A DNA stretch of 64,000 bases, from contig JAPPFW010000009.1 of assembly GCA_028821575.1 (NCBI GenBank), forward strand, positions 18,169 to 82,168, written 5' to 3'. The translations under genes and the position numbers were made by a program. A model generated the notes under the pieces. That model was not told the origin of the DNA, searched no databases, and saw only the letters and a program-made list of their open reading frames with translations. Source of the DNA: a bacterium. Its GTDB lineage: Bacteria > Actinomycetota > Acidimicrobiia > Spongiisociales > Spongiisociaceae. Positions 9,783 through 63,940 of the stretch are shown piece after piece. Each line of letters begins with the position of its first letter. Position 1 is the stretch's first letter.

Positions 9783-9838
9783 GTCAGTGGTCGTCTACCG
9801 CCTCACGGACCACAAGCCACCATCCACCATCCACCAGA
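9783..9838. repeat. Heptad repeat between MMPL and antiporter genes
   Basis: GTCAGTG GTCGTCT ACCGCCT CACGGAC CACAAGC CACCATC CACCATC CACCAGA. Confidence 0.7.
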
Positions 9839-9877
9839 TCGGCGATGACTCGGGGCAGACGCTGTATCGTTGCCCGG

Positions 9878-12118
9878 ATGGTGGTTACTGTTCTCGCGGC
9901 GACCGAGCCGGGGGGGTTCTCTCTTCTCGACGAGCACCAGTTGCTTGTCTTCCTCGTGCAGTTGGCGTTGCTGGTGGGTACTGCCCGTCTCGTCGGGGGT
10001 ATCGCCAACAAGCTACGCCAGCCTCCTGTGGTCGGCCAGATCATCGCCGGGGTGCTGATCGGTCCCAGCGTGCTGGGCCAGTTGTATCCGGACACCTTCG
10101 AGTGGCTCTTCTCCGATGGCACGGTCGGCTCGGTGGTGTACGGGCTGGCGTGGCTGGCCGTGATCATGGTGCTGGTGGTGATCGGCTACGAGACCGACCT
10201 CGGGATCATCATGCGCCTCCGGCGGGCCGCCGTCAACGTCTCCGCCGGAGCCTTCCTGGCCCCGTTCGTGGTGGTGGGGCTGGTCGCCCTGCTGACGCCT
10301 TCCTCGTTCATCGGGGATGCCGGTAGGGGCCTGTACGCTGCATTCATGGCGCTGGCCTTGTCGGTGGCAGCCCTGCCGGTCGTCGCCAAGATACTGCTCG
10401 ACCTGGGATTGCTGCGGCGCAACTTCGGTCAGGTGACCCTGGCCGTGAGCATGACGATGGACTCGGTGGGGTGGCTGATCCTCGCCGGGCTGGCCGGGAT
10501 GGCCCGCGAAGGTTTCAGTCCCTCGGACCTGCTCACCTCCCTCGGAGGCCTAGTCCTCTTCGTGGCGTTGGCGGCCACCCTGGGGCGCTGGATGCTCAAC
10601 CAGGCGATGCGCCTGGCGCTGCGGCAGGGACGGAACGTGCGGGCAGGCCTCACGGTCAGCCTGGTAGCCGCCCTGGCAGGTGGCGCCGTGACCCACGTTC
10701 TGGGTCTCGAGGCCATCCTCGGGGCCTTCATCGTCGGGATCATCCTCGCGACCCTTCGGTATCAACTCGGTGCTGTGCGGCATGTCCTCGAGACTGTGAC
10801 CGACTCGTTCTTCGCTCCCATCTTCTTCGCCTTCAGCGGCCTCCGGGTCGACATCTCGCTGATTGCGAGCCCCGGCGCGGTGATCTGGACGGTCGTGCTC
10901 ATCGTCCTGGCGGTGGCCGCCAAGGTGTTCGGAACCGTGGTGGCCGCCCGCCGCTCCGGTCTCGGCTTCCGTGAGAGCCTGGCCCTGGGGTCGGGGCTGT
11001 CGGCGCTGGGCGCCATGGGGATCGTGGTCGCCTTGGTGGGCCTGAGCCTCGGGGTCCTGAGCGACACCGGCTACACCGTCATAGTGCTGGCTGCGATCGT
11101 CACCTCGCTCGTCGCTCCGATCATGCTGAAGGCAGCGGTGCGGGGCATGGAAGCTGCAGAGGAGGAGCGCTCCCGGCTGGAGTCCGAGGCCATCCGATCC
11201 CAGGCGCAGATCCTGGGATCGCAGAGGATCCTCCTCCCCACCCGCGGAGGAGCCAACAGCGTGTACGCGGCCAACCAGGTCAAGACCCTGTTCCCGGACG
11301 CCGAAATCACGGTGCTGGCGGTGGTTGCCGGCCGCGCCGACTGGCGGAAACGGATGACCGGGGTCGGCGCCCAAGAGGACGCGGGCCCGGACGAGGTGAT
11401 GCGGACGCTCGGATCGGACCGGCACCGGTTGATCAGTCGCCGACGGTCGGACCCCGCAGAGGCGATCATCCAGGAGGCCGATCTCGGTTACGACCTGGTG
11501 GTTCTGGGGGCCACCGAGCCTACCGACGAAAGCGAGGTGTTCTCATCGGTGATCGACCGGGTGCTGGCGAGACTCGAATTGCCGACCCTCATCTTCCGCT
11601 ACCCGACTCCCGGGGAGCCCGATTCGGTCACCGGCGCCGCCACCCTCGACGTGAACAGGGTGCTCCTGTCCGTGGAGTCGAACCGGGCCTCCCGCGCCGC
11701 CGAGGAGGTCGCCTACTCCCTAGCCGCTCACAACGACGGGTTGGTGCTCGCCCTGCACCTGATCGCCGAGTCGGCCGGCGGATCCTTCTACGTGGACCTG
11801 TTGAGCGGCTCCCCGAATCAGAGGGCGGGCCTGGAGTTGGTGGAGGAATCGGTGGCGTTCGGGGAGCGGCTGGGGGCGAGGGTCGACGCCAACGTCAAGC
11901 CGGCGATGCAACCCGCCGGGGACCTGGTGAGTGCGGCCAACACCGGAAACTGGGACCTGCTGGTGATGGGCGCTACCAACCGCCCGCTCAGCAGGCGCCC
12001 CTTTTTCGGGTACAACATGTCCCACGTCCTCAAACATGTCACGATTCCCATGGTCGTGGTCGCCATACCCGACATCGTGTCCCGCTACGCGGCGACCGGA
12101 TCCCAGGACCAAGCCTGA
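9878..12118 (+). CDS. Cation:proton antiporter (CPA2-type) with C-terminal tandem universal stress protein-like domains
   Basis: GIANKLRQPPVVGQIIAGVLIGPSVLG exchanger motif; C-terminal segments RILLPTRGG...VVLGATEPTDESEVFSSVIDRVL and VLLSVESNRASRAAEEVAYSLA...LLVMGATNRPLSRRPFFGYNMSHVL are Usp-like. Confidence 0.85.
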   Translation: MVVTVLAATEPGGFSLLDEHQLLVFLVQLALLVGTARLVGGIANKLRQPPVVGQIIAGVLIGPSVLGQLYPDTFEWLFSDGTVGSVVYGLAWLAVIMVLVVIGYETDLGIIMRLRRAAVNVSAGAFLAPFVVVGLVALLTPSSFIGDAGRGLYAAFMALALSVAALPVVAKILLDLGLLRRNFGQVTLAVSMTMDSVGWLILAGLAGMAREGFSPSDLLTSLGGLVLFVALAATLGRWMLNQAMRLALRQGRNVRAGLTVSLVAALAGGAVTHVLGLEAILGAFIVGIILATLRYQLGAVRHVLETVTDSFFAPIFFAFSGLRVDISLIASPGAVIWTVVLIVLAVAAKVFGTVVAARRSGLGFRESLALGSGLSALGAMGIVVALVGLSLGVLSDTGYTVIVLAAIVTSLVAPIMLKAAVRGMEAAEEERSRLESEAIRSQAQILGSQRILLPTRGGANSVYAANQVKTLFPDAEITVLAVVAGRADWRKRMTGVGAQEDAGPDEVMRTLGSDRHRLISRRRSDPAEAIIQEADLGYDLVVLGATEPTDESEVFSSVIDRVLARLELPTLIFRYPTPGEPDSVTGAATLDVNRVLLSVESNRASRAAEEVAYSLAAHNDGLVLALHLIAESAGGSFYVDLLSGSPNQRAGLELVEESVAFGERLGARVDANVKPAMQPAGDLVSAANTGNWDLLVMGATNRPLSRRPFFGYNMSHVLKHVTIPMVVVAIPDIVSRYAATGSQDQA

Positions 12119-12180
12119 CAGGCGGCCACCGGCTCCGATACGCGTCGATAGAATGCCAAGGTCAGCCTGGCAGCTGGCAG

Positions 12181-12262
12181 GCGGGTGTGGCGGAATGGTA
12201 GACGCGCCAGGTTTAGGTCCTGGTGGGCACAGCCCGTGGGGGTTCGAGTCCCTCCACCCGCA
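12181..12262 (+). tRNA. tRNA-Leu (anticodon TAG)
   Basis: GCGGGTG/CACCCGC acceptor stem, anticodon stem-loop CCAGG-TTTAGGT-CCTGG, variable arm, GGTTCGAGTCC T-arm. Confidence 0.95.
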
Positions 12263-12265
12263 CCG

Positions 12266-12305
12266 GGCCGGAACCTGTCCGGCCACTCACCACCGACCGG
12301 GTGGT
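12266..12305. terminator. Two tandem perfect hairpins between tRNA-Leu and a convergent gene; putative bidirectional terminator
   Basis: GGCCGG-aacctgt-CCGGCC (12266-12284) and ACCACC-gaccg-GGTGGT (12289-12305), immediately before the convergent stop codon at 12307. Confidence 0.4.
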
Positions 12306-12306
12306 C

Positions 12307-13926
12307 TCACTGGAACGAGACGAAGACCGGCACCGGGGTGAGTTCCAGTACCTGCTCGGGCGTCGCAGTGGGGAAGTCCTCGTCGTAGAAATTCTTCCAA
12401 CCCCAGCGGAAGCCACGCTCCTCGGTGCCCTTCGTGAGCACGTTCCAGGTGTTGTACTTGGCCCCCAAACTACCCTGGCCGTCCATCTGGATCACCATCG
12501 CCAACTCCGGGGGCGTCTCGATCAGTTCCCGGTTGGTGATCATGGAGAACCGGAACTGGTGGACTATCAGCAGCTTCTGCGGCAGACTCTCCTCCTGCAC
12601 AATTCCGGCCAGCCACGCCACCACCTCGTTGATCTCCTCGGCGTCGACGGTTCCTATCTGGCGCAGGTGGACCTCGTTGGGCCTGAGCCGCCACTCGGGA
12701 TCGAGGGCCAGGCCCACATGGGGCAGGCGCAGGAACTCCTCGTAATACTTGGCCTGGGTGAGGAAGTGGGTCCGGCCGGGCTGTAGGTCGAGCACCACGT
12801 AGACATCGTTGGCCGCCGCCGTCTCTATCCAGGGGCGTATCACGTCCCGGTCGGTCTCGGCGGAGTAGTCGCCGTCCCTCCCGGCCCCCGCGGACGCAAC
12901 CGTGGCGATGATCTCGAAGGTGGGAAGGATCAGGGCGCCGTCCGCCTCGTAGCCGGCCGCTATCTCAGCGAGCCTCTCCACTCCTTCTTCGGGGCCCTGC
13001 TCCCCCAGGACCCCCAGCGCTGATGTCACGGGGTGCCCGTAGATGGCGATCAGGCGCCTGGAGAAGTCCTCGCCGAACATCAGCAGCCCGCCTCCCGGTA
13101 TCTCGTCGCCACGCCGGACCACATCCAACTGCCAGGCCGTATCCGGGTCGAAGTACGACATCAGGCGCAACTCCCCGGCCCCGGCGATCAACTGCCGGGC
13201 CTCTGCGGGGAGTGCTCGGAAGTCGGGCTCGGCGACTACCAGGCCGACTCCGAGTTTGGCGGCCAGGATGGCCACCGGACCCACCGCGGCGTCCGGATCG
13301 AGCAGCCAGACCTCTTCCGACTCAGGGGCATGACCGATGAGAACCGCGTCCGGATCGACCTCCAGGAACCGCACGTCGTATTCGAAGAGCGTCTGCTCGA
13401 TGCCCTCATCGAGGCCGGCCACGAGCACGGTGTCAGGCGCCAAGCGCCGCAGTTCGGTCATCAGGAAACCCATGAACCAGTCGCCCACCAGGAGCAAAGG
13501 ACCGTCGAGACCTGCGGCAGCCAGGGTTGCCGCGGCCTGCCCGTCCGATGCCGGGGCCAACCCGACCTGGGCGGCGCACTCATAGATCGCTCTCGACAGG
13601 GCGACCGCGCCCGCTACCGGATCCCCCGCCGGCATGCGGAGGTCCGGCGGCACCGACGGCGTGCAGTCGCGGGGTGGCGTCGTGGTCGTCGTCGTGGTGG
13701 GAACGGTGGTGGTGGTCGTCGATGGCTCGGCGCTGGTCGTGGGAGGCTCGACGGCGGCCGTCGTGGGAGCCCGGGTGCCGGTAGTCAGTGATGCCTCGGT
13801 GGCGGTCGAGGGGGTGGACGTAGCGGGGGCATCCTCATCCGAGACCGCGGTACTGGAGCAGGAAAGCAAGACGAGCAGACAGACCGCTACCGGCAGGAAC
13901 GGCCGTCGTACGGCAACCATCCCCAT
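12307..13926 (-). CDS. Putative secreted lipoprotein of unknown function with Thr/Pro-rich linker
   Basis: Signal peptide with lipobox-like LLVLLSC, then PTTTTTTTPPRDC linker and a ~400 aa globular domain; start chosen at MGMVAVRR. Confidence 0.7.
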   Translation of the reverse strand: MGMVAVRRPFLPVAVCLLVLLSCSSTAVSDEDAPATSTPSTATEASLTTGTRAPTTAAVEPPTTSAEPSTTTTTVPTTTTTTTPPRDCTPSVPPDLRMPAGDPVAGAVALSRAIYECAAQVGLAPASDGQAAATLAAAGLDGPLLLVGDWFMGFLMTELRRLAPDTVLVAGLDEGIEQTLFEYDVRFLEVDPDAVLIGHAPESEEVWLLDPDAAVGPVAILAAKLGVGLVVAEPDFRALPAEARQLIAGAGELRLMSYFDPDTAWQLDVVRRGDEIPGGGLLMFGEDFSRRLIAIYGHPVTSALGVLGEQGPEEGVERLAEIAAGYEADGALILPTFEIIATVASAGAGRDGDYSAETDRDVIRPWIETAAANDVYVVLDLQPGRTHFLTQAKYYEEFLRLPHVGLALDPEWRLRPNEVHLRQIGTVDAEEINEVVAWLAGIVQEESLPQKLLIVHQFRFSMITNRELIETPPELAMVIQMDGQGSLGAKYNTWNVLTKGTEERGFRWGWKNFYDEDFPTATPEQVLELTPVPVFVSFQ

Positions 13927-14045
13927 CACCGGCCGAGAAACCCGTACATAGCGGTTAGCCGCCACCCAGCACCATTCGCACCAGGTGCTCGACAGCAAGC
14001 AAACCCTGCCGGAATCATCTCAGCACCCTCCTAAACTGTGCCCTA

Positions 14046-14119
14046 CGGGCTGTGGCGCAGCTTGGCAGCGCGCCTGCTTTGGGAGCAGGAGGTCGTCGGT
14101 TCGAATCCGACCAGCCCGA
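14046..14119 (+). tRNA. tRNA-Pro (anticodon TGG)
   Basis: CGGGCTG/CAGCCCG acceptor, CCTGC-TTTGGGA-GCAGG anticodon arm, TTCGAATC T-loop. Confidence 0.95.
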
Positions 14120-14317
14120 CCGGCCCGCTAGGTCTCCGAGCCGCAGCGTATATCGAGCGAGCCCCGAGTCCGGTGATTTCCTCCCGCCGCCGGCGTTCGA
14201 TCGCCCCCGCTCCGTCCCGCCGACAGTCGCGGCAGGCGACTCCCGCCCGCATGGGAAGACCGCGTGGCGCACGAGGGTTCTGACAGGTCCGGCGCCGATG
14301 TAATATGGGATGGACCG

Positions 14318-14388
<71 letters not shown>

Positions 14389-14439
14389 CTGACGGGTGAG
14401 TCCTGGACCGGGCTCCCGCAGAGCGGAGGGCCGTGATGA

Positions 14440-14512
14440 GCCCCCGTAGCTCAGAGGACAGAGCAGGAGCCTTCTAAGCTCTTGGTCGGAGGTTCGAATC
14501 CTTCCGGGGGCG
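14440..14512 (+). tRNA. tRNA-Arg (anticodon TCT)
   Basis: GCCCCCG/CGGGGGC acceptor, CTTCTAA anticodon loop, GGTTCGAATCC T-arm. Confidence 0.95.
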
Positions 14513-14583
14513 CGCCACGATCGGTACGGATCCGTATCTGGCGAATCCGCATTACAAGGAGCCGGGCGTGATGCCCGGCGCAC

Positions 14584-18063: not shown

Positions 18064-20709
18064 ATGGAGACCGCCCCCACCGGCCCACTCGCAGGAAGTT
18101 ACGACCCGGCGCTCGTAGAGGCCCGCTGGTACCCGGTCTGGGAGGAGTCCGGCGCCTTCAAACCGGAGGTCAACCCGGACGGTGAACCGTTTGCCATCGT
18201 GATCCCACCCCCCAACGTGACCGGGGTGTTGCACATCGGCCATGCTCTCGACCACTCCATCCAGGACGCCATCATCCGGCGCAAGCGCATGCAGGGATAC
18301 GCGGCGCTGTGGCTACCCGGGACCGACCACGCCGGGATAGCCACCCAGATGGTCGTGGAGCGGGAACTGGCCGACGAGGGGCTCACCCGGCACCAGCTGG
18401 GACGGTCCGCGTTCGTCGAGCAGGTGTGGCAATGGAAACGGCGCTCCGGTGGCGCGATCACCCAGCAGATGCGGGCCCTCGGAGACTCATGCGACTGGAC
18501 CAGGGAACGGTTCACCCTCGACGAGGGCCTGTCGGCTGCGGTCCGCGAGGTGTTCGTGGCCCTCTACGAGAGGGGCCTCATCTATCGCGGCCACCGGATC
18601 ATCAACTGGTCACCCGGACTCATGACAGCCATCTCCGACATCGAGGTCGAGTACGAGGAGGTGGAAGGCCAGATGGTTCACATCACCTATCCCTTCTCGA
18701 GCCCCGACCCCGACGCCCGCGACGGCATAACTGTGGCCACCACACGTGCCGAGACGATGCTGGGGGACACGGGAGTGGCGGTCCACCCCCACGACGAGCG
18801 CTACCGGGACCTTGTCGGTCGGACCGTGCGCCTGCCTCTCATGGATCGCGACATCCCGATCGTGGCGGACGAGGCTGTGGATCCGACCTTCGGCACCGGA
18901 GCCGTCAAGGTGACCCCCGCCCACGACCCGCTCGACTTCGAGATCGCGATGAGAACCGGACTCTCGCCGGTCGAGGTGATCGGCCCCGACGGCAGCATGA
19001 CCGAAGCCGCCGGCCGGTTCGCCGGCCTGGACCGGTTCGAAGCCAGGGAGAGGGTCGTCGAGGCGCTCCGACAGGGCGGCTACCTGGACCGGATCGAGGA
19101 ATACGTCCACACCGTCGGGCACTGCTCGCGGAGCGGGGTCGTCGTCGAACCCCTCCTGTCGCGCCAATGGTTCGTCAGGGTGGGCAAGCTGATCGGTCCG
19201 GCTGTGGATGCGGTCCGAAGCGACGAGTGCCGTTTCGTCCCCAAGCGCTGGGAGAAGAACTACTTCCACTGGATGGAGAACCTGCAGGACTGGTGCATCA
19301 GCCGCCAACTCTGGTGGGGTCATCGGATTCCCGCCTGGTACTGCGATCTCGACGGCGCGGTGACGGTGGCGAGGAAGCGGCCCCAGGGCTGCTCCGAGTG
19401 CGGTTCGGAGGACCTGCGCGCCGACGAGGACGTGCTCGACACCTGGTTCAGTTCCGCCCTGTGGCCCTTCTCCACGCTCGGGTGGCCCGGCGACTCCCCG
19501 GATCTGGCCCGCTTCTACCCGACCGACGTGCTCGTTACGGGCTACGACATCATCTTCTTCTGGGTGGCCCGCATGCTGAAGATGGGACTCGAGTTCGTGG
19601 GCGACGTGCCTTTCCGGGAGATCGTGATCCATGGACTGGTGCGGGCGTCGGACGGTCGCAAGATGTCGAAGTCTCTCAACAACATCGTCGACCCCTTGGA
19701 GATGATCGACTCCTACGGCGCCGACGCCTTGCGTCTCAGCTTGCTGCAGTCGGCTTCTCCCGGCCACGACGTCCCCTTCGACGTCAAATGGGTGGACGCC
19801 GCCCGGCGTTTCGGCAACAAGCTCTGGAACGCCGTCAAGTTCGCCCTCATCCACATCGAGAGCGGGAGCGTCCCCGCGACCGGCGGCTACCCCCAGGCGC
19901 CCGGACCCGTCGACTGCTGGGTCCTCGCCCGGCTCGGCGAGGTCGCAGCCGAGACCGACGCCCTCCTGGACCGCCACCGCCTGTCCGACGCCTACTCGAA
20001 GCTGTACTCCTTCGCCTGGTCCGAGGTGTTCGACTGGTATCTAGAGATGTCCAAGCCGACGCTCGCAGGTGGCGGATCCGGCGCTCGCGCTGCTCGCCGG
20101 ACGCTAGGCGTCGTGCTCCGCGACCTGCTCAAGCTCTTCCATCCGGCGATTCCCTTTCTCACCGAGGAACTCCACAGCCACCTGGTGGGGGACACCCTTC
20201 TGATCACCTCATCCTGGCCCGAGGTCCCGCACTACGCGGCGCCGCCGGGGATGGAGAACCTCCAGGGCCTGGTCTCGGGACTCCGCCGCTTCCGTGCCTC
20301 CCACGGTCTCGGGGCCCGCCGGGACCTTGCCCCCGTCATTCACGACCCCGGCGGTGTCTGGGAAGATTGGTGGGAACGCCAGGTGAAGGCTCTCGCGTCG
20401 AGCACCCCCAAGCTCGGAGAACCGCCGGAGGGCGGCGGTCACATGAGGGTGGTGGCCGGAACCGTCCACGCCTACATACCCGTGGCCGGCCTGGTGGACG
20501 TCGAAGGGGAGAGGGCACGCCTCGCCGGCCGCGTCGAGAAGGTCGAGGCGGACCTGCGGCGGGCCGAGCGGAAGCTCTCGAACCCCTCCTTCCGCGAGCG
20601 AGCCCCCACCGAGATCGTCGCCAAGGAAGAGGCGAAAGCCGCCGACGCCCGCAGGTCGCTGGAGGCGCTGGCCGAGCAGATGGACTCGCTTCCGGTGGCT
20701 GGTGGCTAG
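18064..20709 (+). CDS. valS: Valyl-tRNA synthetase
   Basis: PPPNVTGVLHIGHAL, GRKMSKSLNNIVDPLEMI; class I aaRS. Confidence 0.97.
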   Translation: METAPTGPLAGSYDPALVEARWYPVWEESGAFKPEVNPDGEPFAIVIPPPNVTGVLHIGHALDHSIQDAIIRRKRMQGYAALWLPGTDHAGIATQMVVERELADEGLTRHQLGRSAFVEQVWQWKRRSGGAITQQMRALGDSCDWTRERFTLDEGLSAAVREVFVALYERGLIYRGHRIINWSPGLMTAISDIEVEYEEVEGQMVHITYPFSSPDPDARDGITVATTRAETMLGDTGVAVHPHDERYRDLVGRTVRLPLMDRDIPIVADEAVDPTFGTGAVKVTPAHDPLDFEIAMRTGLSPVEVIGPDGSMTEAAGRFAGLDRFEARERVVEALRQGGYLDRIEEYVHTVGHCSRSGVVVEPLLSRQWFVRVGKLIGPAVDAVRSDECRFVPKRWEKNYFHWMENLQDWCISRQLWWGHRIPAWYCDLDGAVTVARKRPQGCSECGSEDLRADEDVLDTWFSSALWPFSTLGWPGDSPDLARFYPTDVLVTGYDIIFFWVARMLKMGLEFVGDVPFREIVIHGLVRASDGRKMSKSLNNIVDPLEMIDSYGADALRLSLLQSASPGHDVPFDVKWVDAARRFGNKLWNAVKFALIHIESGSVPATGGYPQAPGPVDCWVLARLGEVAAETDALLDRHRLSDAYSKLYSFAWSEVFDWYLEMSKPTLAGGGSGARAARRTLGVVLRDLLKLFHPAIPFLTEELHSHLVGDTLLITSSWPEVPHYAAPPGMENLQGLVSGLRRFRASHGLGARRDLAPVIHDPGGVWEDWWERQVKALASSTPKLGEPPEGGGHMRVVAGTVHAYIPVAGLVDVEGERARLAGRVEKVEADLRRAERKLSNPSFRERAPTEIVAKEEAKAADARRSLEALAEQMDSLPVAGG

Positions 20710-20756
20710 TGGCTTGTGGCTGTTGAAGACCACTGACCACTGACCACTGACCACTA
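20694..20756. repeat. Inverted heptad array (4 x NGTGGCT, 7-nt spacer, 4 x ACCACTN)
   Basis: GGTGGCT GGTGGCT AGTGGCT TGTGGCT GTTGAAG ACCACTG ACCACTG ACCACTG ACCACTA, exact 7-bp register; overlaps valS stop codon. Confidence 0.9.
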
Positions 20757-31748: not shown

Positions 31749-31997
31749 ATGTCCAAGACAAAAGGCGGAGGCTCGACCAAGAACGGGCGCGATTCGCAGG
31801 CGAAGCGGCTCGGTCCGAAGGTTTTCGACGGCCAGTACATCAACGCCGGGACCATCCTCGTGCGCCAGCGGGGGACGCGCATCCACCCCGGAGACAACGT
31901 CGGTCGGGGAGGCGACGACACGCTCTTCGCCCTCAAGGAGGGAACGGTCAAGTACCACATGCGGCACGGTCGCCGGAGGGTGAGCATCCTCAGCTAG
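31749..31997 (+). CDS. rpmA: 50S ribosomal protein L27
   Basis: [48 protein letters not shown]. Confidence 0.97.
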
Positions 31998-32050
31998 TAG
32001 TTGCTGGTTGGTAACCGCCAGTAGTATCCACTACCAATTCAGACTACCGG
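31995..32050. repeat. Degenerate heptad repeat between rpmA and obgE
   Basis: TAGTAGT TGCTGGT TGGTAAC CGCCAGT AGTATCC ACTACCA ATTCAGA CTACCGG; begins at the rpmA stop codon. Confidence 0.5.
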
Positions 32051-40719: not shown

Positions 40720-43442
<2,723 letters not shown>

Positions 43443-43458
<16 letters not shown>

Positions 43459-43484
43459 CGGCTAGATACAACCACCAACCACTA
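43443..43484. repeat. Inverted heptad array at leuS/permease convergence
   Basis: AGTAGTT GGCGGTT AGCGGCT AGATACA ACCACCA ACCACTA, exact 7-bp register; contains the stop codons of both convergent genes. Confidence 0.85.
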
Positions 43485-44687
43485 GAACTCCGCTGAACGG
43501 AACGCCTCCCGTAGCTTCACACGCCGCTGGTACTTGAACACGCCCCCGGCGTAGACCCGGCCCGCGGCCCTGATGAGCCACCAGCCGAAGCCGACCGTCA
43601 GTGCCGCGGCCAGGAACTGTTCCCAGGCAGCAACCGAGTCGGACACCGCCCGGACCGGTATCACGAAGGGAGCTGTCATGGGTACGAGGGATAGCACTAC
43701 GGAGAGGAGGGCGTCCGGGTGGTTGCCCACATAGAGGATCCCGACCAGGTAGCCGACGAGGGCGACCATCGTCATCGGGAAGGCGGCGTTCTGTGCATCT
43801 TCGGGTCGGGAGGTGACAGCACCCACCGCCGCGTACGCGACCGCGTAGACGGCGTATCCCAGGACGAACCAGACGAGCAGGGTGGCCAGCAAGGCGGCAT
43901 CCACCTCCTGGATCAGGTCTGGGCCGAAGACGAGGCGGATTCCCAGGACCAGCCCGCCGGCGACGACGCCGAACTGCAGGAGTCCGAGGATTCCAACCCC
44001 CACGATCTTGCCCGAGAGCAGGTGCCAGGGTCGGACGGCCGCCAGCAGTACCTCGACCACCCGGCTGGTCTTCTCCTCAGTCACGCCCAGCAGGACCCAG
44101 GATCCGGTCATCATGATGGCCATGAAGAGAAGCACTAGCGCTGCCTGCCCGATCAGGAACTGGCGGACCTCCGAGTTCTCGCCGGACTCCGGGATGGCCC
44201 GGGTAACCTCGACTACCTGACCGGTGAGGAGTTCGACCACCCGGTCCGTGGCCTCGCCCGACGCCACCATCTCCTCCAGCCGGGCACGGAGCGCGCCCTG
44301 CTGCACCAGCCTCTCCAATTGCGTGCCCGCCGACTCCCCGACAACCAACTCGGTGTCCTCGACCAGCAGCGCATCGATCTGCTCTTCGGCCAGGGCCCTG
44401 GTCCCATCCTCACGATCGTCGAAGGACGACGCCTCGATGATCCCCGTCCGGCCCGAGTCCTCGAGCACCGAGCGCGCCGCTTCGACGGTCCTCGACCCAT
44501 CGTCGCCCACCAGGCCGAGCCGGTAGGTGGGGACTTCGTCGGCGCCGCCGTCCAACAGCGCGGGTACGGCGAACCCGGCGCCGATCAGAAGGGCCAGGAT
44601 CAGCCAGCTGACCAGGTACGACTTGCTGAGGCCCCTCTCGCGAAGTTCGCGTACGGTTACCAGACCGATCGCACGCATACCGTTCAT
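43482..44687 (-). CDS. ABC transporter permease (ABC-2/NatB-like)
   Basis: N- and C-terminal TM segments; GSWVLLGVTEEKTSRVVEVLLAAVRPWHLLSGKIVGVGILGLLQ. Confidence 0.9.
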   Translation of the reverse strand: MNGMRAIGLVTVRELRERGLSKSYLVSWLILALLIGAGFAVPALLDGGADEVPTYRLGLVGDDGSRTVEAARSVLEDSGRTGIIEASSFDDREDGTRALAEEQIDALLVEDTELVVGESAGTQLERLVQQGALRARLEEMVASGEATDRVVELLTGQVVEVTRAIPESGENSEVRQFLIGQAALVLLFMAIMMTGSWVLLGVTEEKTSRVVEVLLAAVRPWHLLSGKIVGVGILGLLQFGVVAGGLVLGIRLVFGPDLIQEVDAALLATLLVWFVLGYAVYAVAYAAVGAVTSRPEDAQNAAFPMTMVALVGYLVGILYVGNHPDALLSVVLSLVPMTAPFVIPVRAVSDSVAAWEQFLAAALTVGFGWWLIRAAGRVYAGGVFKYQRRVKLREAFRSAEF

Positions 44688-45571
44688 CCGGCGACGGCCT
44701 CCTTGAAGAGGTCGGACAGAGTCGGGGGCCGGTAGGTGAACTCCCGTATCGGTACCCTCTCCGGCACCAGACCGAAGAGCTCGTGAACGTCGGCCTCCGC
44801 GGGTACGAGTACCGTGTGCCGGCTGCCCCGGGACTGCAGGAGTTCCGCGCCGGGAATGCGCTCAAGGAACCCTGCCGTGCTGTCCGTGTCCAGTTCCAAG
44901 CGCCGGTACCTGGCCTGATCCTTGAGCGATTTGACATCACCGGCCAGCACCACCCGTCCCCGGTTGATGATCGCCACGTCGTCGCACAGGTCCTCCACCA
45001 GATCCAGTTGATGGCTAGAGAACAGGACCGCTGCCCCCGACCGGGCGCTTTGTCGCAGGATACGGGCCATGTCCTCCACGCCCAGTGGGTCCAAGCCGCT
45101 GAACGGTTCGTCGAGGACCAGGACTTCCGGGTCGTGGATCAGGGATGCGGCCAACTGGACCCTCTGCTGGTTGCCGTGGGACAGTTCCTCCAGCCTGGAC
45201 TCGGCCCGGTCCTCTAGACCCATCTTCCCGAGCCAGCGATCAGCTGCCTCGGACGCCCGCTTCCTGTCCAGACCGTGCAGGCGTCCCAGGTACGTCAGCT
45301 GCGCGCGGACCTTCATCCGGGGATACAGCCCGCGCGCCTCGGGCATGTATCCGAAGCGGCGCCGGACTTCCGGTCCGACCGGCCTCCCGTTCCACGCCAC
45401 GCCACCTTCATCAAGGCGCAACAGCCCGAAGATCGCTCGCATCGCACTGGTCTTTCCGGCGCCGTTGGGCCCGAGAAACCCCACCATGCGCCCGGACCTC
45501 ACCGCGAGGTGGCAACCGTCGAGGGCCACGACCTCGTCGTAACGCTTTCTGAGCCCTACCAGTTCCAGCAA
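44684..45571 (-). CDS. ABC transporter ATP-binding protein (NatA-like)
   Basis: LVGLRKRYDEVVALDGCHLAV, GFLGPNGAGKTSAMRAIFGLL, VLVLDEPFSGLDPLGVEDMARIL; TTG start at 45571 preferred over ORF-track start inside repeat sequence. Confidence 0.9.
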   Translation of the reverse strand: MLELVGLRKRYDEVVALDGCHLAVRSGRMVGFLGPNGAGKTSAMRAIFGLLRLDEGGVAWNGRPVGPEVRRRFGYMPEARGLYPRMKVRAQLTYLGRLHGLDRKRASEAADRWLGKMGLEDRAESRLEELSHGNQQRVQLAASLIHDPEVLVLDEPFSGLDPLGVEDMARILRQSARSGAAVLFSSHQLDLVEDLCDDVAIINRGRVVLAGDVKSLKDQARYRRLELDTDSTAGFLERIPGAELLQSRGSRHTVLVPAEADVHELFGLVPERVPIREFTYRPPTLSDLFKEAVAG

Positions 45572-45602
45572 CCCGATTCCCGCCTCGCCTGTCTCCCAGG
45601 GT

Positions 45603-45679
45603 AGTGGCTTGTGACTCGTGGCTCGTGGCTGGTGCCAGAGGCAGGTGTTGGGTGTTGGGTGTTGGGTCTCTGGTGTTAG
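45603..45679. repeat. Heptad repeat array (11 units)
   Basis: AGTGGCT TGTGACT CGTGGCT CGTGGCT GGTGCCA GAGGCAG GTGTTGG GTGTTGG GTGTTGG GTCTCTG GTGTTAG. Confidence 0.85.
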
Positions 45680-45984
45680 GGGGATGGCGGGAGACGAGTG
45701 TCCTCGGTTGCCTCGAGCTCGGTCGTCAAGTGTCCGTCCCGTATCAGATACCAGGTGGCCGTTGCCCACGAAGCCGTGACCCGTCTCACTACCAATCGAA
45801 GGTTGGTCCAGCCACCATCCACCAGAAGCAGGACTTACAGGGACGGAGAACGTTGCCGCCCCGCCCCCCTAATACGTAACACCTAGTACCCAACACCTGA
45901 CTGGCACCATCGACCAAGCCCCTTCTCCGCCGGTCCACCTTCTGATACAAGGTCGTTCGAGAGGCCTACTCAGAAAGGCGAGAG

Positions 45985-46611
45985 ATGCCCGAAGCGCCCG
46001 ATCCGGCCGGAACAGCCCTTTTGCCCTTGGGTACCTTCCCGCGGCGGGTGGCCTCGGTAGTGGGCACCGCAATCGCTCTGGCAGTGGCCTTCGCCTACTG
46101 GCACCGACCTCAGCCGCCACCCACCAGTTCCGTTCCTCCCGCAACAACGTCCGTTGCAACAGCGGCTCCCACCCGCATCGTCTACTTGACCGTCCACGTG
46201 TCCGGGGCCGTGTCCCACCCTGGGCTGGTAACAGTTGCGGAGGGGGGACGGGTAGCGAACGCACTGGTAGCCGCAGGCGGCGTTCGACCAGGTGGGGAAT
46301 TGGGGAGCATCAACCTCGCCGCCTTTTTGACGGACGGGATGCACATCGTCGTTCCATGGATCGGCGACGGTCTTGCGGCCGGGCCCGGCGACCCCTCCGG
46401 GAGTTCTCCGGGCTTCCCAGTCGACGTCAACAGCGCGGGGGTGGAGCGCCTGACCGATCTCCCCGGCGTGGGTCAGGTTCTGGCCACCCGGATCCTCACC
46501 TATCGGGATACCCACGGACCTTTCGAGACCCTGGAGGACCTGCTTGACGTGCCGGGCATCGGGGAGGGGAGGCTTGCCGGCCTCCGTGACTACGCGGTGG
46601 TGAAACGATAG
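45985..46611 (+). CDS. ComEA-like helix-hairpin-helix DNA-binding competence protein
   Basis: N-terminal TM, SLBB-like VHVSGAVSHPGLVTVAEGGRVANALVAAGG, HhH pair VDVNSAGVERLTDLPGVGQVLATRIL...LLDVPGIGEGRLAGLRDY. Confidence 0.92.
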   Translation: MPEAPDPAGTALLPLGTFPRRVASVVGTAIALAVAFAYWHRPQPPPTSSVPPATTSVATAAPTRIVYLTVHVSGAVSHPGLVTVAEGGRVANALVAAGGVRPGGELGSINLAAFLTDGMHIVVPWIGDGLAAGPGDPSGSSPGFPVDVNSAGVERLTDLPGVGQVLATRILTYRDTHGPFETLEDLLDVPGIGEGRLAGLRDYAVVKR

Positions 46612-49650: not shown

Positions 49651-50636
49651 AGAGCCTCGTTCACATCAGCGGACCGAGAGAACCGGGGCCGGGGGAGCGC
49701 AAACACATGCTGGACCGGGCCGCCGAGGTATTCGCTTCGGCCGGGATCACGCCGGGCGACATCGTGCGGATCCATGTGCCCGGCCGTGGTCAGTCGGAAG
49801 CGGGGGATGCGACCATCAGGCCCGAGGTGGAACCGGTCGTTCCTGCCCTGCAATCCGGTTCCCTGTTCGGCGGTCGTACTGGCGTGATGGTGAACGACGC
49901 CCACCTCCTCCGGGCCTCGGAGGCCACAGCCGTCGCGGACCTGCTCTCCCAGCCGCCCGCCGCCGGCCGCCAGGTCGTATTCGTATCGACTGGGAGGTTG
50001 CCTGCGCCCCTTGGCGCATACATCAAGAAGAACGGGCAGTCGGTGCCGATCCGGAAGCTCCGGGAGCGTGACGCCCTGGACTGGATCCGTCGTGCAGCTC
50101 GGGAGCGGCGGCTACGGCTGCCGGGGAAGGCCGCTGAGGCCCTGGTTGAACGGTTCGGGTCCGACATAGAGGCATTGGGCCAGGCGCTGGAACAACTGAT
50201 GATGTCCAGGGAGTCGATCACAGCTGAGTCGATCCGCGACCGCTTCCGCAACCGTCCCGAAGAGCCCATCTGGCACTTCACCGACGCGCTGGCCGGCGGC
50301 CAGGTGGACGAGGCACTGCGCAGGTTGCACGACCTGCTCACCCATACCCATCCCCTGTTCCTGCTCGCGGCCATCGAGAACGACCTGCGCAGAAGGTCAC
50401 TCGCGTCGGCGGCGCCTGACATCGAGACCTTGGCGAAATGGCTCGGGTCTAAACCGGATGCGTTCCCCACCCGCAAGACGTGGCAAGCAGGGAAGAGCAT
50501 GAGCGGCGACAACCTGAGCCGGGCGCTGGACGCGGTTCGGCGTGCGGACGCCACCCTGAAGACATTTCCCGAGGAGACCCACTTGGTGACCTTGGAACGG
50601 CTCACGGTCTCCCTCTGCTACTGGTACCGCAGGTGA
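49647..50636 (+). CDS. holA: DNA polymerase III subunit delta
   Basis: LQSGSLFGGRTGVMVNDAHLL; WIRRAARERRLRLPGKAAEALVERFGSDIEALGQALEQLM; precedes rpsT; TTG start at 49647 inferred. Confidence 0.85.
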   Translation: MKSLVHISGPREPGPGERKHMLDRAAEVFASAGITPGDIVRIHVPGRGQSEAGDATIRPEVEPVVPALQSGSLFGGRTGVMVNDAHLLRASEATAVADLLSQPPAAGRQVVFVSTGRLPAPLGAYIKKNGQSVPIRKLRERDALDWIRRAARERRLRLPGKAAEALVERFGSDIEALGQALEQLMMSRESITAESIRDRFRNRPEEPIWHFTDALAGGQVDEALRRLHDLLTHTHPLFLLAAIENDLRRRSLASAAPDIETLAKWLGSKPDAFPTRKTWQAGKSMSGDNLSRALDAVRRADATLKTFPEETHLVTLERLTVSLCYWYRR

Positions 50637-50640
50637 CCGC

Positions 50641-50698
50641 GGTCAGTGCTCAGTGGTCAGTGGTCGCCTAACACGAAGACCAACCGCCTAACACCTAG
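50641..50698. repeat. Heptad repeat array between convergent holA and rpsT
   Basis: GGTCAGT GCTCAGT GGTCAGT GGTCGCC TAACACG AAGACCA ACCGCCT AACACCT AG; includes rpsT stop (CTA on + strand). Confidence 0.8.
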
Positions 50699-58819: not shown

Positions 58820-58836
58820 TCCGCCCCGGTTGATGG

Positions 58837-59727
58837 ATGAAGACGGGCTTCGCGGCCGTGGTCGGCCGCCCCAACGTCGGCAAGTCGACTCTCATCAACG
58901 GCTTGGTGGGTAGCAAGGTATCGATCACCTCCAAGCGTCCTCAGACCACCCGCCTGGTGGCACGCGGGATACTGACCATCGAGGGTCCGGATGGGGGAGC
59001 CCAGATAGTCCTGATCGACACTCCCGGGCTTCACCGCCCGCGCACCGCGTTGGGAGAGCGCCTCAACTCGATCGCCTACAGGAGCCTCGTCGAGGCCGAT
59101 TGCTTCCTCTTCGTCATCGAGGCTACCGGCAAGGTTGGTCCCGGTGACCGCCGGATCGCAGAACGCCTTATCAGGATCGGCCCGGCCGACAAGGTGATTG
59201 TGATCGTGAACAAGATCGACCTGGTCCGTAAGGGCCGCGTAGCAGAGCGCCTGAGCGAAGCCGCTCCGTGGGACTTCGGAGCCTACGTGCCGGTTTCGGC
59301 ATTGACCGGCGACGGCCTCGACCGCGTAGTCGGCGAACTGGTGCCCCGCCTACCCGAAGGGCCTGCGCACTATCCGGCGGGCACGAGCACGGACCAGCCG
59401 GAGGAGGTGCTGGTGGCCGAAACGGTGCGCGAGAAGTTGCTCGCCGTGATGCGTGATGAGCTTCCCCACTCGGTGGCGGTCAAGACCGAGACCATCGAGC
59501 GACGGAAAGGCGGCTCGATCCGGATCGAGGCCTCCATCTACGTGGAGCGCCTCTCCCAGAAGGGAATCGTCATCGGTGCCGGCGGATCGATGATCCGCCA
59601 GGTGGGAACTGAGGCCCGCCTGGACCTCGAGAAGACCCTCGCCGGCCCGGTGTACCTCGACCTTCGAGTTAAGGTCGAGAAGGACTGGCAACGTTACCCC
59701 GACCGGATAAGACGGCTGGGCCTCTAG
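58837..59727 (+). CDS. era: GTPase Era
   Basis: AVVGRPNVGKSTLINGLVGSKVSITSKRPQTTRLVARGIL; C-terminal KH domain GAGGSMIRQVG. Confidence 0.97.
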   Translation: MKTGFAAVVGRPNVGKSTLINGLVGSKVSITSKRPQTTRLVARGILTIEGPDGGAQIVLIDTPGLHRPRTALGERLNSIAYRSLVEADCFLFVIEATGKVGPGDRRIAERLIRIGPADKVIVIVNKIDLVRKGRVAERLSEAAPWDFGAYVPVSALTGDGLDRVVGELVPRLPEGPAHYPAGTSTDQPEEVLVAETVREKLLAVMRDELPHSVAVKTETIERRKGGSIRIEASIYVERLSQKGIVIGAGGSMIRQVGTEARLDLEKTLAGPVYLDLRVKVEKDWQRYPDRIRRLGL

Positions 59728-59808
59728 TCAGGTGTTAGGTGTTAGGTGGTAGTGGATGAAGGTGATATTCAAGAGACGACCAGCCGCTAGCCGCTAACCA
59801 CCAGCCGG
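59725..59808. repeat. Inverted heptad array between convergent era and PCD genes
   Basis: TAGTCAG GTGTTAG GTGTTAG GTGGTAG TGGATGA AGGTGAT ATTCAAG AGACGAC CAGCCGC TAGCCGC TAACCAC CAGCCGG, exact 7-bp register. Confidence 0.85.
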
Positions 59809-60074
59809 TCGATGCGTGCGGCTAGCGTCGTGTCCTTTTGGGTGAGACCTCCCTGGTCATGGGTGGTGAGCGATATCGTCACCCGGTTGTAGCGGATGTC
59901 GATGTCAGGATGGTGAAAGGCCTTCTCGGCCAGCACCCCCACCGACGCCACGAAGCCGATCGACCTCGCGAAGTCGCCGAACCGGTAGGTCTTGCTGATG
60001 GTTTCCCCCGAGAGTTCCCACCCGGAGTGGGAAGCCAGGAACTCCCGGCGGTCGGATTCATCGAGTAGGGCCAC
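59787..60074 (-). CDS. 4a-hydroxytetrahydrobiopterin dehydratase (pterin-4a-carbinolamine dehydratase)
   Basis: SGETISKTYRFGDFARSIGFVASVGVLAEKAFHHPDIDIRYNRVTISLTTHDQGGLTQKD. Confidence 0.93.
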   Translation of the reverse strand: MALLDESDRREFLASHSGWELSGETISKTYRFGDFARSIGFVASVGVLAEKAFHHPDIDIRYNRVTISLTTHDQGGLTQKDTTLAARIDRLVVSG

Positions 60075-60152
60075 GGCCTCACCCTACCCTCGGAACTCGC
60101 CCCGCCGGGTACCCTGCCGGATGATGTCCACAGTCCTGCGCCTCGGCCGACG

Positions 60153-60881
60153 ATGACGCTCCGGCGTGACCAGGGAATCGTCCTCCGCGGCTACCCGTTC
60201 GGAGAGGCAGACCGGATCGTTCTCCTGATCAGCCCCAACCACGGGTTGGTAAGGGCGGTGGCCAAGGGTGTCCGCAGGACGAAGAGTCGCTTCGGGGGTC
60301 GCCTGGAACCCCTCACCCACGTTGATCTCGTGCTCTTCCAGGGGCGTAACCTTGCCACCATCACACAGGTCTCCGTCATAGAGCCCTTCCCGCGGCTACG
60401 CGGCGATCTCGACGCGGTGCTGGTCGCGGGGACCATGGCGGAGGCGATCAGCAAGGTGATCGTGGAAGGTGAGCCTTCCCACCGGCTCTTCCTGCTCCTG
60501 CAGAGGGGACTGCAGGCGCTCGAGCACGGCGCCGGGGGCCTGGACCTGGTCGCCTCCTTCCTTCTCAAGCTGATGGATGCCCTCGGACAGGCCCCGGCCC
60601 TGCGCCACTGCGCCGCCTGTGGCCGGAAGAACGCCCTGGACCGGTTCAGCCTGGTGGGAGGGGGACTCGTTTGCAGCACATGCGACATCGGGGGAACGTT
60701 TCGACTGCGCGAGGGACTCACACTGCACCTGGCCCGGCTGTCCGATGCCGACTTCCTCGACCTCAAGGAACCCGACAGCGACCTGGCGGCGGATGCAGTG
60801 GGCCTGGCCAGGCGTTTCGTCGAGTTCCACATCGAGGTGGGCCTAGCCGGACTCGCCTACAGCAACATCAAAGGGGTATGA
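60153..60881 (+). CDS. recO: DNA repair protein RecO
   Basis: RDQGIVLRGYPFGEADRIVLLIS...GLVRAVAKGVRRTKSRFGGRLEPL; CAACGRKNALDRFSLVGGGLVCSTC zinc motif. Confidence 0.95.
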   Translation: MTLRRDQGIVLRGYPFGEADRIVLLISPNHGLVRAVAKGVRRTKSRFGGRLEPLTHVDLVLFQGRNLATITQVSVIEPFPRLRGDLDAVLVAGTMAEAISKVIVEGEPSHRLFLLLQRGLQALEHGAGGLDLVASFLLKLMDALGQAPALRHCAACGRKNALDRFSLVGGGLVCSTCDIGGTFRLREGLTLHLARLSDADFLDLKEPDSDLAADAVGLARRFVEFHIEVGLAGLAYSNIKGV

Positions 60882-61672
60882 CCATGGGCACCGAGGAAAC
60901 CGTAGCCCGCCTCGACCTGACCAGGGTGGACCCGGATCGGATCCCGGCCCATCTCGGTCTCATCATGGACGGTAACGGCAGGTGGGCGACCGAGCGCAAC
61001 CTGCCCAGGACCGCCGGACATGCGGCAGGGGAGGCCGTTCTCTTCGAATGCGTGGAAGGAGCGCTGGCGGTCGGACTGCGCTGGCTGTCCGCCTACACGT
61101 TCTCCACCGAGAACTGGACCCGCTCGCCCGACGAGGTCTCCTTCCTGATGTGGTTCAACGAGGACATCCTGTTGCGCCGCCTCGACTCACTGGACGGGAT
61201 GGGCGTGAGGCTGCACTTCGCCGGAGACCTGGCCGATGAGCGCATTCCGGAACGCAACCGGCGCCATATGCGCGACGCGGTTGCCCGCACTCGCGACAAC
61301 GAGCGGCTCGCCCTCGTCCTGGCCTTCAACTACGGAGGCCGGGCCGAGATCATGAGAGCCGTCCAGATCCTCGCAGCCGAGGTGGCCGCCGGTCACCGGA
61401 ATGCGTGCGCCATCAGGGAACGCGACCTGGCCGGTCACTTCTACGTACCCGGCATGCCCGACCCGGATGTGATCGTGCGGACTTCAGGGGAGATGCGGAT
61501 CTCGAACTTCCTATTGTGGGGGAGCGCCTATGCCGAGTTGGTCTTCACCGACACCCTATGGCCCGACTTCGGCGCGCAGGATCTGGTGGACGCCATCATC
61601 GAGTTCCAGATGCGGGGACGGCGGTTCGGAGGGGCGGTGTCGCCCGGCAGTCCTGAGGAGACCGATGGGTAA
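60878..61672 (+). CDS. uppS: Isoprenyl transferase (undecaprenyl diphosphate synthase family)
   Basis: [82 protein letters not shown]. Confidence 0.95.
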
Positions 61673-61716
61673 CCGGGGTCGGTTACCATCCCTGCGCCTC
61701 GCCTAGGAGCCCGCCG

Positions 61717-63045
61717 ATGCCGGAACCCACCTTCGCCACGATCGTAAACCTGGCCAAGAAACGCGGGTTCGTCTTCCAGGCGTCCGAAATATACGGGGGA
61801 CTCCGTTCTGCTTACGACTACGGACCACTCGGCGTCGCCCTGCTGCGCAACGTGAAAGAGGCCTGGTGGAGATCCATGGTCCGGTCGAGGGACGACGTGG
61901 TCGGGCTGGACTCGGCCATCATCCAGTCGCCGCTGGTGTGGGAGGCGTCGGGTCATGTCTCCCAGTTCCACGATCCACTGGTCGAGTGCACCTCCTGCCA
62001 TAGCCGGCACCGGCTGGACAAACTCGAAGACCAGTCCCGGTGCCCGAAATGTGGCACCCGGGAGTCCTTCACCGAGGCGCGGGACTTCAATCTAATGTTC
62101 CGGACCCACATGGGTCCGGTGGCGGGCGAGGGGAACCTCGTCTACCTGCGTCCCGAAACTGCGCAGGGCATCTTCACGAACTTCGAGAACGTCCGGAGGG
62201 TCATGCGTCGCAAGCTGCCGTTCGGTATAGCCCAGGTCGGCAAGTCGTTCCGCAACGAGATCACGCCCGGCCAGTTCGTCTTCCGCACGCGCGAGTTCGA
62301 GCAGATGGAGATGGAGTTCTTCACGCATCCCGACGAGGCGGACCAATGGTTCGAATACTGGATCGACGAGCGCCGAGCCTGGTACCTGGACCTGGGTATG
62401 CGCTCCGACAACCTCCGGTTGAGGTCCCATCAGGGCGACGAACTCGCCCACTACGCGGTGGGCACCTACGACGTGGAATACCGCTTCCCGTGGGGATGGG
62501 ACGAACTGGAGGGGATCGCCAACCGTACCGACTTCGACCTCCGCATGCACTCGGAGCACTCCGGCAAGGACCTCCGCTACTTCGATCAGGCGGCAGGAGA
62601 GCGGTTCTACCCGTACGTGATCGAACCGGCCGCCGGCGCCACCAGGGCCGCCTTCGCGTTCCTGATCGATGCCTACGACGAGGAGATCGTCAGGGGCGCC
62701 ACCAGGGCGGTCCTGCGCATCGATTCGAGGCTCGCGCCCATCAAGGTGGCGGTCCTCCCGCTTTCCCGCAAGCCCGACCTGGTCGAGGTTACCGGAAGGG
62801 TTGCTTCCTTGCTCCGGCCCCGATGGGACATCGAGGTCGACGTAACCCAGGCGATCGGTAGGCGGTACCGGCGGCAGGACGAGATCGGAACCCCGCTCTG
62901 CGTGACCGTCGACTTCCGGACCCTCGACGACCGCGCGGTTACGGTCCGGGACAGGGATACGATGGCTCAGGACCGGGTGTCGATCGACCGGCTGGTCGGC
63001 TACCTGGCAGACCGTCTGGCGGACAGCCCGAGAACGGGAGCGTGA
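61717..63045 (+). CDS. glyS: Glycyl-tRNA synthetase (class II, alpha2 type)
   Basis: [76 protein letters not shown]. Confidence 0.97.
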
Positions 63046-63899
63046 AGGTGAGAAGAGTAGGGATAGCCATCGGGATATTGCTGGTTCTGGTGGTCGCGGG
63101 CCTCGCCTACGTCTGGTTCTCAGGGGGAAGCGGGGAGCCGAGCACCGAGGTCACCGCCCCGCCCGTGACCACGGCCGCCCCGACCCAGTCGGACAGCAGC
63201 GAAGAGGGAGAAGCAGCAGCGGAAGAGGAAGGGCCACCGGCTCCGGCGGACACCGTGGCCGAGGAGCCCGGCACCACCGCTGGGACCGCGACCACGACGT
63301 CGGCCGTCGCCACATCTCCGTCCACGACCCAGGCCACGGACCGGGACGAGGAGGCCACGGCCGTCGTGTACCGCATTGACAAGGCCGAGTCGTCGGTCCG
63401 CTTCGAGATCGACGAGATCCTGAACGGTAGTCCCAAGCGGGTCGTCGGTACCACCAGCGAGGTGGCCGGCGAGATCCTGATCGACTTCGACAACCCGCCC
63501 GCCTCCAGCCTCGGCGCAGTCGTGATCAACGTCCGTACCCTCGAGACCGACTCCAGCTTCCGCGACCGGGCGATGCGAGGTCCCATACTCGGCTCAGCCA
63601 GGGACGAGAACGAGTTCGCCACGTTCGAACCAACGGACATCACAGGTCTTCCGGACCGGGTGACCGTAGGAGATCGCGTATCTCTGACTGTGGTGGGCGA
63701 CTTCACATTGAGCGGTGTGACCCTACCCGTCGAGTTCTCCGTCGAGGCGGTGGTCGGCTCAACCGAGCGCATCGAGGTGAGCGGCGTAGCGACCGTGCTC
63801 CGGTCGGACTTCGGTCTAACGGTCCCAGATGTACCGAGCGTGAGCGACGTAGCCGACGAAGTGACCCTCGCCATCGAGTTGGTGGCAGTGGTGGGTTAG
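63042..63899 (+). CDS. Membrane-anchored YceI family protein
   Basis: N-terminal TM, Thr/Glu linker, then [18 protein letters not shown]...[30 protein letters not shown]...[18 protein letters not shown]. Confidence 0.85.
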
Positions 63900-63940
63900 A
63901 GGGTCAGGTCCAAGGTGCCAGGTGCGAGTAGGTGCTAGTT
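63878..63940. repeat. Heptad repeat overlapping the 3' end of the YceI gene
   Basis: GTTGGTG GCAGTGG TGGGTTA GAGGGTC AGGTCCA AGGTGCC AGGTGCG AGTAGGT GCTAGTT. Confidence 0.65.

What the first reader, a model, noticed from the sequence alone, without database searches (positions are those of the whole stretch)
9783..63940. A family of intergenic 7-bp-period repeats (heptads built on GTGG / CCAC cores) recurs throughout the window
Seen directly: at 9783-9838, 20694-20756, 31995-32050, 43443-43484, 45603-45679 (with relatives at 45801-45827 and 45875-45909), 50641-50698, 59725-59808 and 63878-63940, non-coding DNA breaks cleanly into consecutive 7-mers (e.g. GTGGCTA, GTGGTCA, GTGTTAG, ACCACTG, CCACCAT). 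Units differ between sites but keep the 7-bp frame, even through the central spacers. The sites sit almost exclusively at gene 3' ends. Conceptually they resemble the heptameric STRR repeats of cyanobacteria (established), but here most have inverted arms. Function as transcript-end, terminator or recombination elements is inference.
Basis: partly seen in the sequence, partly recalled or inferred. Interest (0 to 1): 0.8.

Follow-up and report, generated by a model that had tools for sequence, protein, structure and literature searches.

The report
Inward-facing seven-base repeats between genes
Non-coding gaps in this uncultured actinobacterial (Acidimicrobiia) genome hold strictly seven-base tandem repeats in two inward-facing arms; they look like copies of a spreading repeat family that grows and shrinks seven bases at a time, not ordinary transcription terminators, and similar arrays turn up in other bacteria and phages.

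Summary
In 358 kb of this Acidimicrobiia MAG not chosen for repeats, non-coding DNA holds 24 period-7 arrays, against 0-4 at every other non-harmonic period and 0.3 in shuffles. Each listed window site peaks at lag 7; four are individually weak. Units differ between sites but share a degenerate heptad, RGTKGYY, in inward-facing arms (GT->CA 15 of 15). Arrays favour gene 3' ends (68% vs 46% expected) and convergent gaps. Stops beside them are TAG in 63% of genes (32% elsewhere), often inside the array.

The interpretation changes. In a sister genus the same architecture is a dispersed repeat, (GCTAGTT)n-TTTATRTTGGATTA-(ACTGACC)n, with 14-64 copies per genome in nine of ten members. Unit numbers vary at orthologous sites and presence is polymorphic between strains ~97-98% identical. 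The host genome has 31 copies, its congener one, other families almost none; the window's valS site aligns to it without a gap. No hairpin selection, U-tract or target duplication was found, and similar arrays fill gaps between co-directional phage tail genes, so termination is unlikely. Best reading: a selfish, non-autonomous, slippage-prone dispersed repeat, copying machinery unknown. New variant of known heptameric repeats.

The parts
9804..9837 (-). CA-rich arm (CCACAAG/CCACCAT heptads = RGTKGYY on - strand); weak partner GTCAGTGGTC at 9783-9795
   Evidence: heptad profile 34.2 bits; TRF period 7 at 9817
20692..20725 (+). GT arm (GGTGGCT/AGTGGCT/TGTGGCT); contains the valS TAG stop at 20707-20709
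   Evidence: 34.0 bits; lag-7 match 0.75 over the site
20722..20728 (.). core GTTGAAG between the arms; same core and right arm as a copy in sister-genus genome G007 (L195)
20729..20756 (-). CA arm (ACCACTG)4
   Evidence: 32.6 bits; whole site 20705-20752 aligns gap-free to the sister-genus element model R1, 22.2 bits
31993..32050 (+). weak site between a short ORF and obgE: GT arm 31993-32012, degenerate CA side
   Evidence: 18.5 bits for 31993-32012; lag-7 shuffle p=0.007
43441..43485 (.). both arms between convergent leuS (stop 43456-43458) and an ABC permease gene; the 23-bp gap is all array
   Evidence: 19.1 and 20.6 bits; genes
45599..45682 (+). two GT arrays (GTGGCTC type and GGTGTTG type) in a divergent gap
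   Evidence: 33.3 and 26.8 bits
45808..45825 (-). CA arm of the 45.6-45.9 kb block
   Evidence: 19.3 bits
45866..45901 (-). second CA arm of the block
   Evidence: 22.5 bits
50631..50698 (.). site between convergent DNA polymerase III delta-like gene (end 50636) and ribosomal protein S20 gene; GT arm 50631-50666
   Evidence: 23.8 bits; genes
59727..59758 (+). GT arm (GTGTTAG) starting at the era stop
   Evidence: 26.7 bits
59770..59806 (-). CA arm (AGCCGCT), overlapping the end of the convergent pterin-4a-carbinolamine dehydratase gene
   Evidence: 26.8 bits
63878..63940 (+). weak heptad stretch over the end of a YceI-domain gene (TAG at 63897-63899)
   Evidence: lag-7 p=0.0035; below profile threshold

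Best explanation
The sites are copies, many decayed or overgrown, of a dispersed non-autonomous repeat. Each copy has two arms of tandem 7-bp units that point inwards (RGTKGYY on each arm's own strand) around a short AT-rich core. New copies arise when core plus arms are copied into, or replace, the DNA at the ends of genes; the arm next to the gene often supplies its TAG stop. The arms then lengthen, shorten and homogenise in steps of one 7-bp unit, most simply by replication slippage, so each site acquires its own unit within the shared consensus. Copies persist where they do least harm: gene 3' ends and convergent gaps rather than divergent, promoter-bearing gaps. Shown: period, consensus, polarity, position, dispersed core, unit-number change, presence/absence polymorphism. 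Inferred: copying as the source of new sites, slippage as the source of unit change, and lack of a required host function. The copying enzyme is unknown.
For: Period 7 dominates non-coding repeats. Shared consensus, 5.86 bits against 4.29 +/- 0.13 for shuffled units. Dispersed copies with one core: model R1 finds 31 in this genome, 14-64 in nine of ten sister-genus genomes, 1 in the congener, 0 in the other three family members; 6 of 247 class genomes match, all in one family. The window valS site fits R1 over 48 positions without gaps. (GGTGGCT)x3 occurs 82 times in this genome and nearly nowhere in 58 relatives. Left-arm unit counts at one orthologous site are 2, 9, 6 and 1 in four species. 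Presence/absence at orthologous convergent gaps: one site only in G014, another in G014, G010 and G008 but not in six others. Convergent gaps 22/55 vs 66/373 (p=5e-4), divergent 5/55 vs 88/373 (p=0.014).
Against: No target-site duplication or clean insertion junction at the two polymorphic sites; the intergenic DNA looks replaced. No IS200/RAYT transposase in 25 genomes and no fit with reverse transcriptases. Many host-genome sites lack the recognisable core, so common descent of all window sites is not proven. Slippage alone does not explain why the step is always 7. A consensus constrained at some positions but not others hints at recognition by a protein.
Confidence: 0.5

Rival explanations
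1. A protein-binding platform: a ribbon-helix-helix-type protein reads contiguous 7-bp subsites cooperatively in both arms, as omega/ParB of pSM19035 does on its parS heptads, and uses them to mark or insulate gene ends.
For: Strict 7-bp step without gaps, degenerate but position-constrained consensus, inward polarity 15/15, core kept while arm length varies. Precedent: parS of pSM19035, 7-10 contiguous 7-bp repeats, at least four needed (PMC9499535).
Against: The omega consensus WATCACW is not this one; no candidate protein was identified; rapid loss, patchy distribution and unit numbers down to 1-2 argue against a required function.
Confidence: 0.2
2. Bidirectional terminators or 3'-end mRNA-stabilising hairpins: the arms pair in RNA.
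For: 3'-end and convergent enrichment; some sites fold strongly, with about 6 of 7 bases paired per heptad (valS z=-4.6, L026 z=-8.0); some convergent gaps consist only of array.
Against: Cognate arms pair no better than swapped arms (p=0.85); no TTTT after 69 CA arms; sister-genus element has no consensus fold; era and holA/rpsT sites not better than shuffled; the valS array lies about 28 bp before the likely folC start; arrays between co-directional phage tail genes.
Confidence: 0.12
3. Independent local slippage: each array was born on the spot from a chance seed, with no dispersal, because polymerase slippage favours 7-bp steps (the hypothesis cited in PMC4692102).
For: Period 7 recurs with different vocabularies in other families, Selenomonadales and phages.
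Against: Chance seeds would not give one consensus, one polarity or a common core at dozens of loci.
Confidence: 0.12

Closest known systems
Heptameric repeats of Xanthomonas (GGGAATC) and Nostoc (GGGGAYT), including cyanobacterial STRR-type repeats
   Same: 7-bp units, intergenic, near the 3' side of the upstream ORF (average 28 nt vs 160 nt downstream), rare between divergent genes, inverted forms exist, length varies between close relatives, function unknown (PMC4692102).
   Different: Those share one G-quadruplex-forming unit; here units vary around RGTKGYY without GGG tracts, arms are consistently inward-facing, and a core is shared between loci.
TAACTGA direct repeats of Beggiatoaceae, some cyanobacteria and Bacteroidetes
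   Same: Abundant intergenic 7-bp direct repeats (PMC4679880).
   Different: One fixed unit, mostly pointing at start codons, nearly no inverted arrangement (1 of 170 sets).
parS of plasmid pSM19035 (omega/ParB, ribbon-helix-helix)
   Same: Contiguous non-palindromic 7-bp sites in mixed orientation, four or more needed (PMC9499535).
   Different: Six sites at promoters of one plasmid, consensus WATCACW; here many chromosomal sites at gene ends and no known binder.
REP/BIME elements with RAYT
   Same: Dispersed, inward-symmetric, enriched at gene 3' ends (own knowledge).
   Different: No RAYT/Y1 transposase in 25 genomes, no conserved hairpin, arms are variable tandem arrays.

Membership tests
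Heptameric simple sequence repeats / STRR (broad kind) | 7-bp unit in tandem, intergenic, many loci | tested here: met
Heptameric simple sequence repeats / STRR (broad kind) | copy number varies between related genomes | tested here: met
   orthologous sites in the sister genus; not tested within the window's own species
GGGAATC / GGGGAYT G4 repeats | G-tract unit able to form quadruplexes | tested here: not met
   consensus RGTKGYY, no GGG tract
REP/BIME | RAYT (IS200-like Y1) gene in the genome | tested here: not met
   0 of 25 genomes, controls positive
MITE | target-site duplication and clean insertion at empty sites | tested here: not met
   two polymorphic sites, no duplication, flanks replaced
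MITE | related autonomous transposon | not tested
   only Y1 and reverse transcriptase families were searched
Intrinsic terminator | stable hairpin followed by U-tract | tested here: not met
   0 of 69 followed by TTTT; pairing not site-specific
omega-type parS | at least four contiguous 7-bp sites | tested here: inconclusive
   met at many sites, but others have 1-3 units
omega-type parS | consensus WATCACW | tested here: not met
omega-type parS | a cognate ribbon-helix-helix protein | not tested
   no search made

The most novel reading that the evidence does not exclude
A sequence-guided process, shared across bacterial phyla and phages, recognises 7-nt units and writes or copies a lineage-specific heptad vocabulary, typically as two inward-facing arms around a core, into non-coding gaps; period 7 reflects the ruler of an unknown enzyme or binding protein rather than polymerase slippage.
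Probability: 0.1. Interest if true: 0.9.

Novelty: new variant of a known kind. Interest (0 to 1): 0.6.

Why it matters
Why bacterial intergenic repeats so often have 7-bp units has been open since it was noticed in 2007 (as cited in PMC4692102). This family offers handles that the described ones lack: a shared degenerate consensus, a fixed polarity, a core that marks likely common descent, strains that differ in presence and unit number, and sister genomes with none. It also shows that such arrays should not be read as terminators merely because they sit at gene ends and can be drawn as hairpins.

Tried and rejected
All-frame stop-codon cassettes: 23 of 78 units carry a stop, 23.3 expected from shuffled units. 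Arm-to-arm compensatory pairing: no better than swapped arms by identity or RNA energy; a first duplexfold version gave implausible energies and was dropped. Reversed sequence as null for the heptad profile: invalid, because the motif nearly reads the same backwards. Assembly breaks at arrays: suggested by selected contigs, but only 1 of 20 unselected contig starts (a poly-C) and 0 of 8 ends. RAYT and reverse transcriptase as mobilisers. Core in IMG/VR contigs: 0 matches. Rfam: only tRNAs in the window. Resemblance of GCTGGTGG to E. coli Chi is from memory and was not tested.
Full report
What was checked. The window is part of a 100-contig, 4.14 Mb genome whose closest named relative by valyl-tRNA synthetase is an Acidimicrobiia MAG (62% identity). 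Most of the stretches were chosen because they matched a heptad query; the 20 stretches and the window were not, and I use those for unbiased counts. Genes were called with a simple codon-usage script; starts are approximate, stops reliable.

Period 7 is real and specific. In the unselected 358 kb, non-coding DNA holds 24 lag-7 segments at score >=12, against 0-4 at the other non-harmonic lags; block-shuffled non-coding DNA gives 0.3. In the first sample there were 62 at lag 7 against 2-6 at other non-harmonic lags, of which two are all-N contigs. The listed window sites all peak at lag 7. Two are weak (31995-32050, 63878-63940), and two short stretches are marginal alone.

Anatomy. Rotation-aligned units from unselected arrays share one consensus, RGTKGYY, with 5.86 bits against 4.29 +/- 0.13 (maximum 4.68) for composition-shuffled units. 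Every inverted pair of arms has the GT-rich arm first and the CA-rich arm second (15 of 15), so each arm carries RGTKGYY on its own strand, pointing inwards. Arms lie nearest a gene 3' end in 53 of 78 cases (46% expected, p=7e-5), and sites are over-represented in convergent gaps (22/55 vs 66/373, p=5e-4) and under-represented in divergent gaps (5/55 vs 88/373, p=0.014). Genes ending within 15 bp of an array stop with TAG in 37 of 59 cases, against 32% elsewhere (p=6e-6), and 24 of 59 stops lie wholly inside the array. In the window the leuS/ABC-permease, holA-like/rpsT and era/dehydratase convergent gaps (23-59 bp) consist largely of array.

A dispersed family. At the valS 3' end, congener G001, family member G002 and the sister genus g4 lack the array. 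But in g4 the folC-ndk gap carries (GTTGCTA)n-TTTATATTGGATTAGACC-(GACCACT)n in five species, with the same core and different unit numbers, and a DNA search showed the same core with both arms at many other loci. A sequence-only model of this element, R1, finds 31 copies in the window's genome, 14-64 in nine of ten g4 genomes, none in G006, one in G001, none in G002, G003 and G005, and almost none in other families apart from 13 weak matches in G027; in a wider class sample six of 247 genomes match at the stricter threshold, all in this family. The window's valS site matches R1 over 48 positions without a gap, and its core and right arm (GTTGAAGACCACTGACC) recur in G007. Valyl-tRNA synthetase loci of these genera are only about 78% identical in DNA, so such similarity in non-coding DNA needs copying, transfer or constraint.

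Turnover. Unit number changes fast: at one orthologous site the left arm has 2, 9, 6 and 1 units in G014, G008, G013 and G010, and at others 6 vs 3 or 5 vs 3. Presence is polymorphic: the L250 site has the element in G014 but not in G010 or G013 (97-98% identical at the valS locus); the L251 site has it in G014, G010 and G008 but not in six other genomes. At both sites the gap between convergent genes is replaced rather than cleanly interrupted, and I saw no target duplication. The exact heptad run (GGTGGCT)x3 occurs 82 times in the window's genome, 40 forward and 42 reverse, and is nearly absent from 58 relatives, so each lineage has its own vocabulary.

Is it a terminator? Some sites fold well, with about six of seven bases paired per heptad. 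But cognate arms pair no better than arms exchanged between sites (-22.0 vs -21.4 kcal/mol, p=0.85); the g4 element has a consensus energy of -0.17 kcal/mol; no CA arm of 69 is followed by TTTT. A search of IMG/VR for (GTGGTCA)n gave 42 stretches; 32 non-redundant ones hold 180 lag-7 arrays against 0-16 at other non-harmonic lags (this set was selected for at least one heptad array each). One of them, L323, carries phage tail and baseplate genes, and nearly every gap between its co-directional genes is an array such as (AGTAATC)n-AGTTTTTTGCTTTTTGCCTTT-(ACTGGCC)n. Terminators in each gap of a phage tail module are implausible (inference from how such operons usually work). I therefore rank termination low, without excluding it at single sites.

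How it probably works. The data fit a non-autonomous repeat that is copied as core plus arms and whose arms then change by whole heptads. Copying is inferred from the shared core and polymorphic presence; slippage is inferred from unit-number change and within-array homogeneity. Neither a RAYT-type transposase nor a reverse transcriptase follows its distribution, so the mobiliser is unknown. A protein with a 7-bp step, as omega/ParB on pSM19035 parS (PMC9499535), remains a serious alternative because the consensus is constrained at some positions only.

Known or new. Heptameric intergenic repeats are known: GGGAATC/GGGGAYT in Xanthomonas and Nostoc, near the 3' side of genes and rare in divergent gaps (PMC4692102), and TAACTGA in Beggiatoaceae (PMC4679880). 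The first paper also cites the over-representation of heptamers in bacteria and a polymerase-slippage hypothesis. I found no description of this composite architecture in the held papers, though that library lacks most subscription journals. I file it as a new variant of a known kind.

Limits. The genome is a MAG with 5.7% estimated contamination; relatives are unnamed handles; gene calls are approximate; the arm-pairing test rests on 15 sites; no isolate of the window's own species was available for strain comparison.

Noticed in passing
window 63941-64000: A second, longer dispersed repeat (CATACTGGAATTGCCCCGTTTGGTGGGGGGTCGCTGCGACGATCGGGG) starts right after the last heptad site; the same or very similar DNA sits at contig ends L155, L158 and L148, so it probably breaks the assembly.
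   Followed up: partly
L247 right flank (about 510-640): A repeat of about 130 bp beside a heptad element in the sister genus hits dozens of places across the g4 genomes searched; identity unknown.
   Followed up: no
L323 (IMG/VR 3300044824_000335): A phage tail-module contig in which nearly every gap between co-directional genes is an inward-facing heptad array with a T-rich core.
   Followed up: partly
L172 (G020) and L176 (G021): Other Acidimicrobiia families have dense period-7 arrays with different vocabularies (GGGCGGT, CCAAGAC; CAGCCAC, GATACGC), and in G021 the arm polarity relative to genes looks reversed.
   Followed up: partly
L122 614-671 and L085 2885-2922: Selenomonadales contigs also carry period-7 arrays, one with inverted arms (ACGGCTT ... 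CAGCTAT).
   Followed up: no
window 45571-46339: Two GT arms followed by two CA arms spread over 300 bp in a gap between divergent genes, as if two elements were nested or duplicated.
   Followed up: no
L218 (G000:C56:36-86): A near-perfect sister-genus-type copy (62 bits to R1) at the very start of a contig of the window's genome, although valS loci of the two genera are only about 78% identical; transfer or contamination possible.
   Followed up: no
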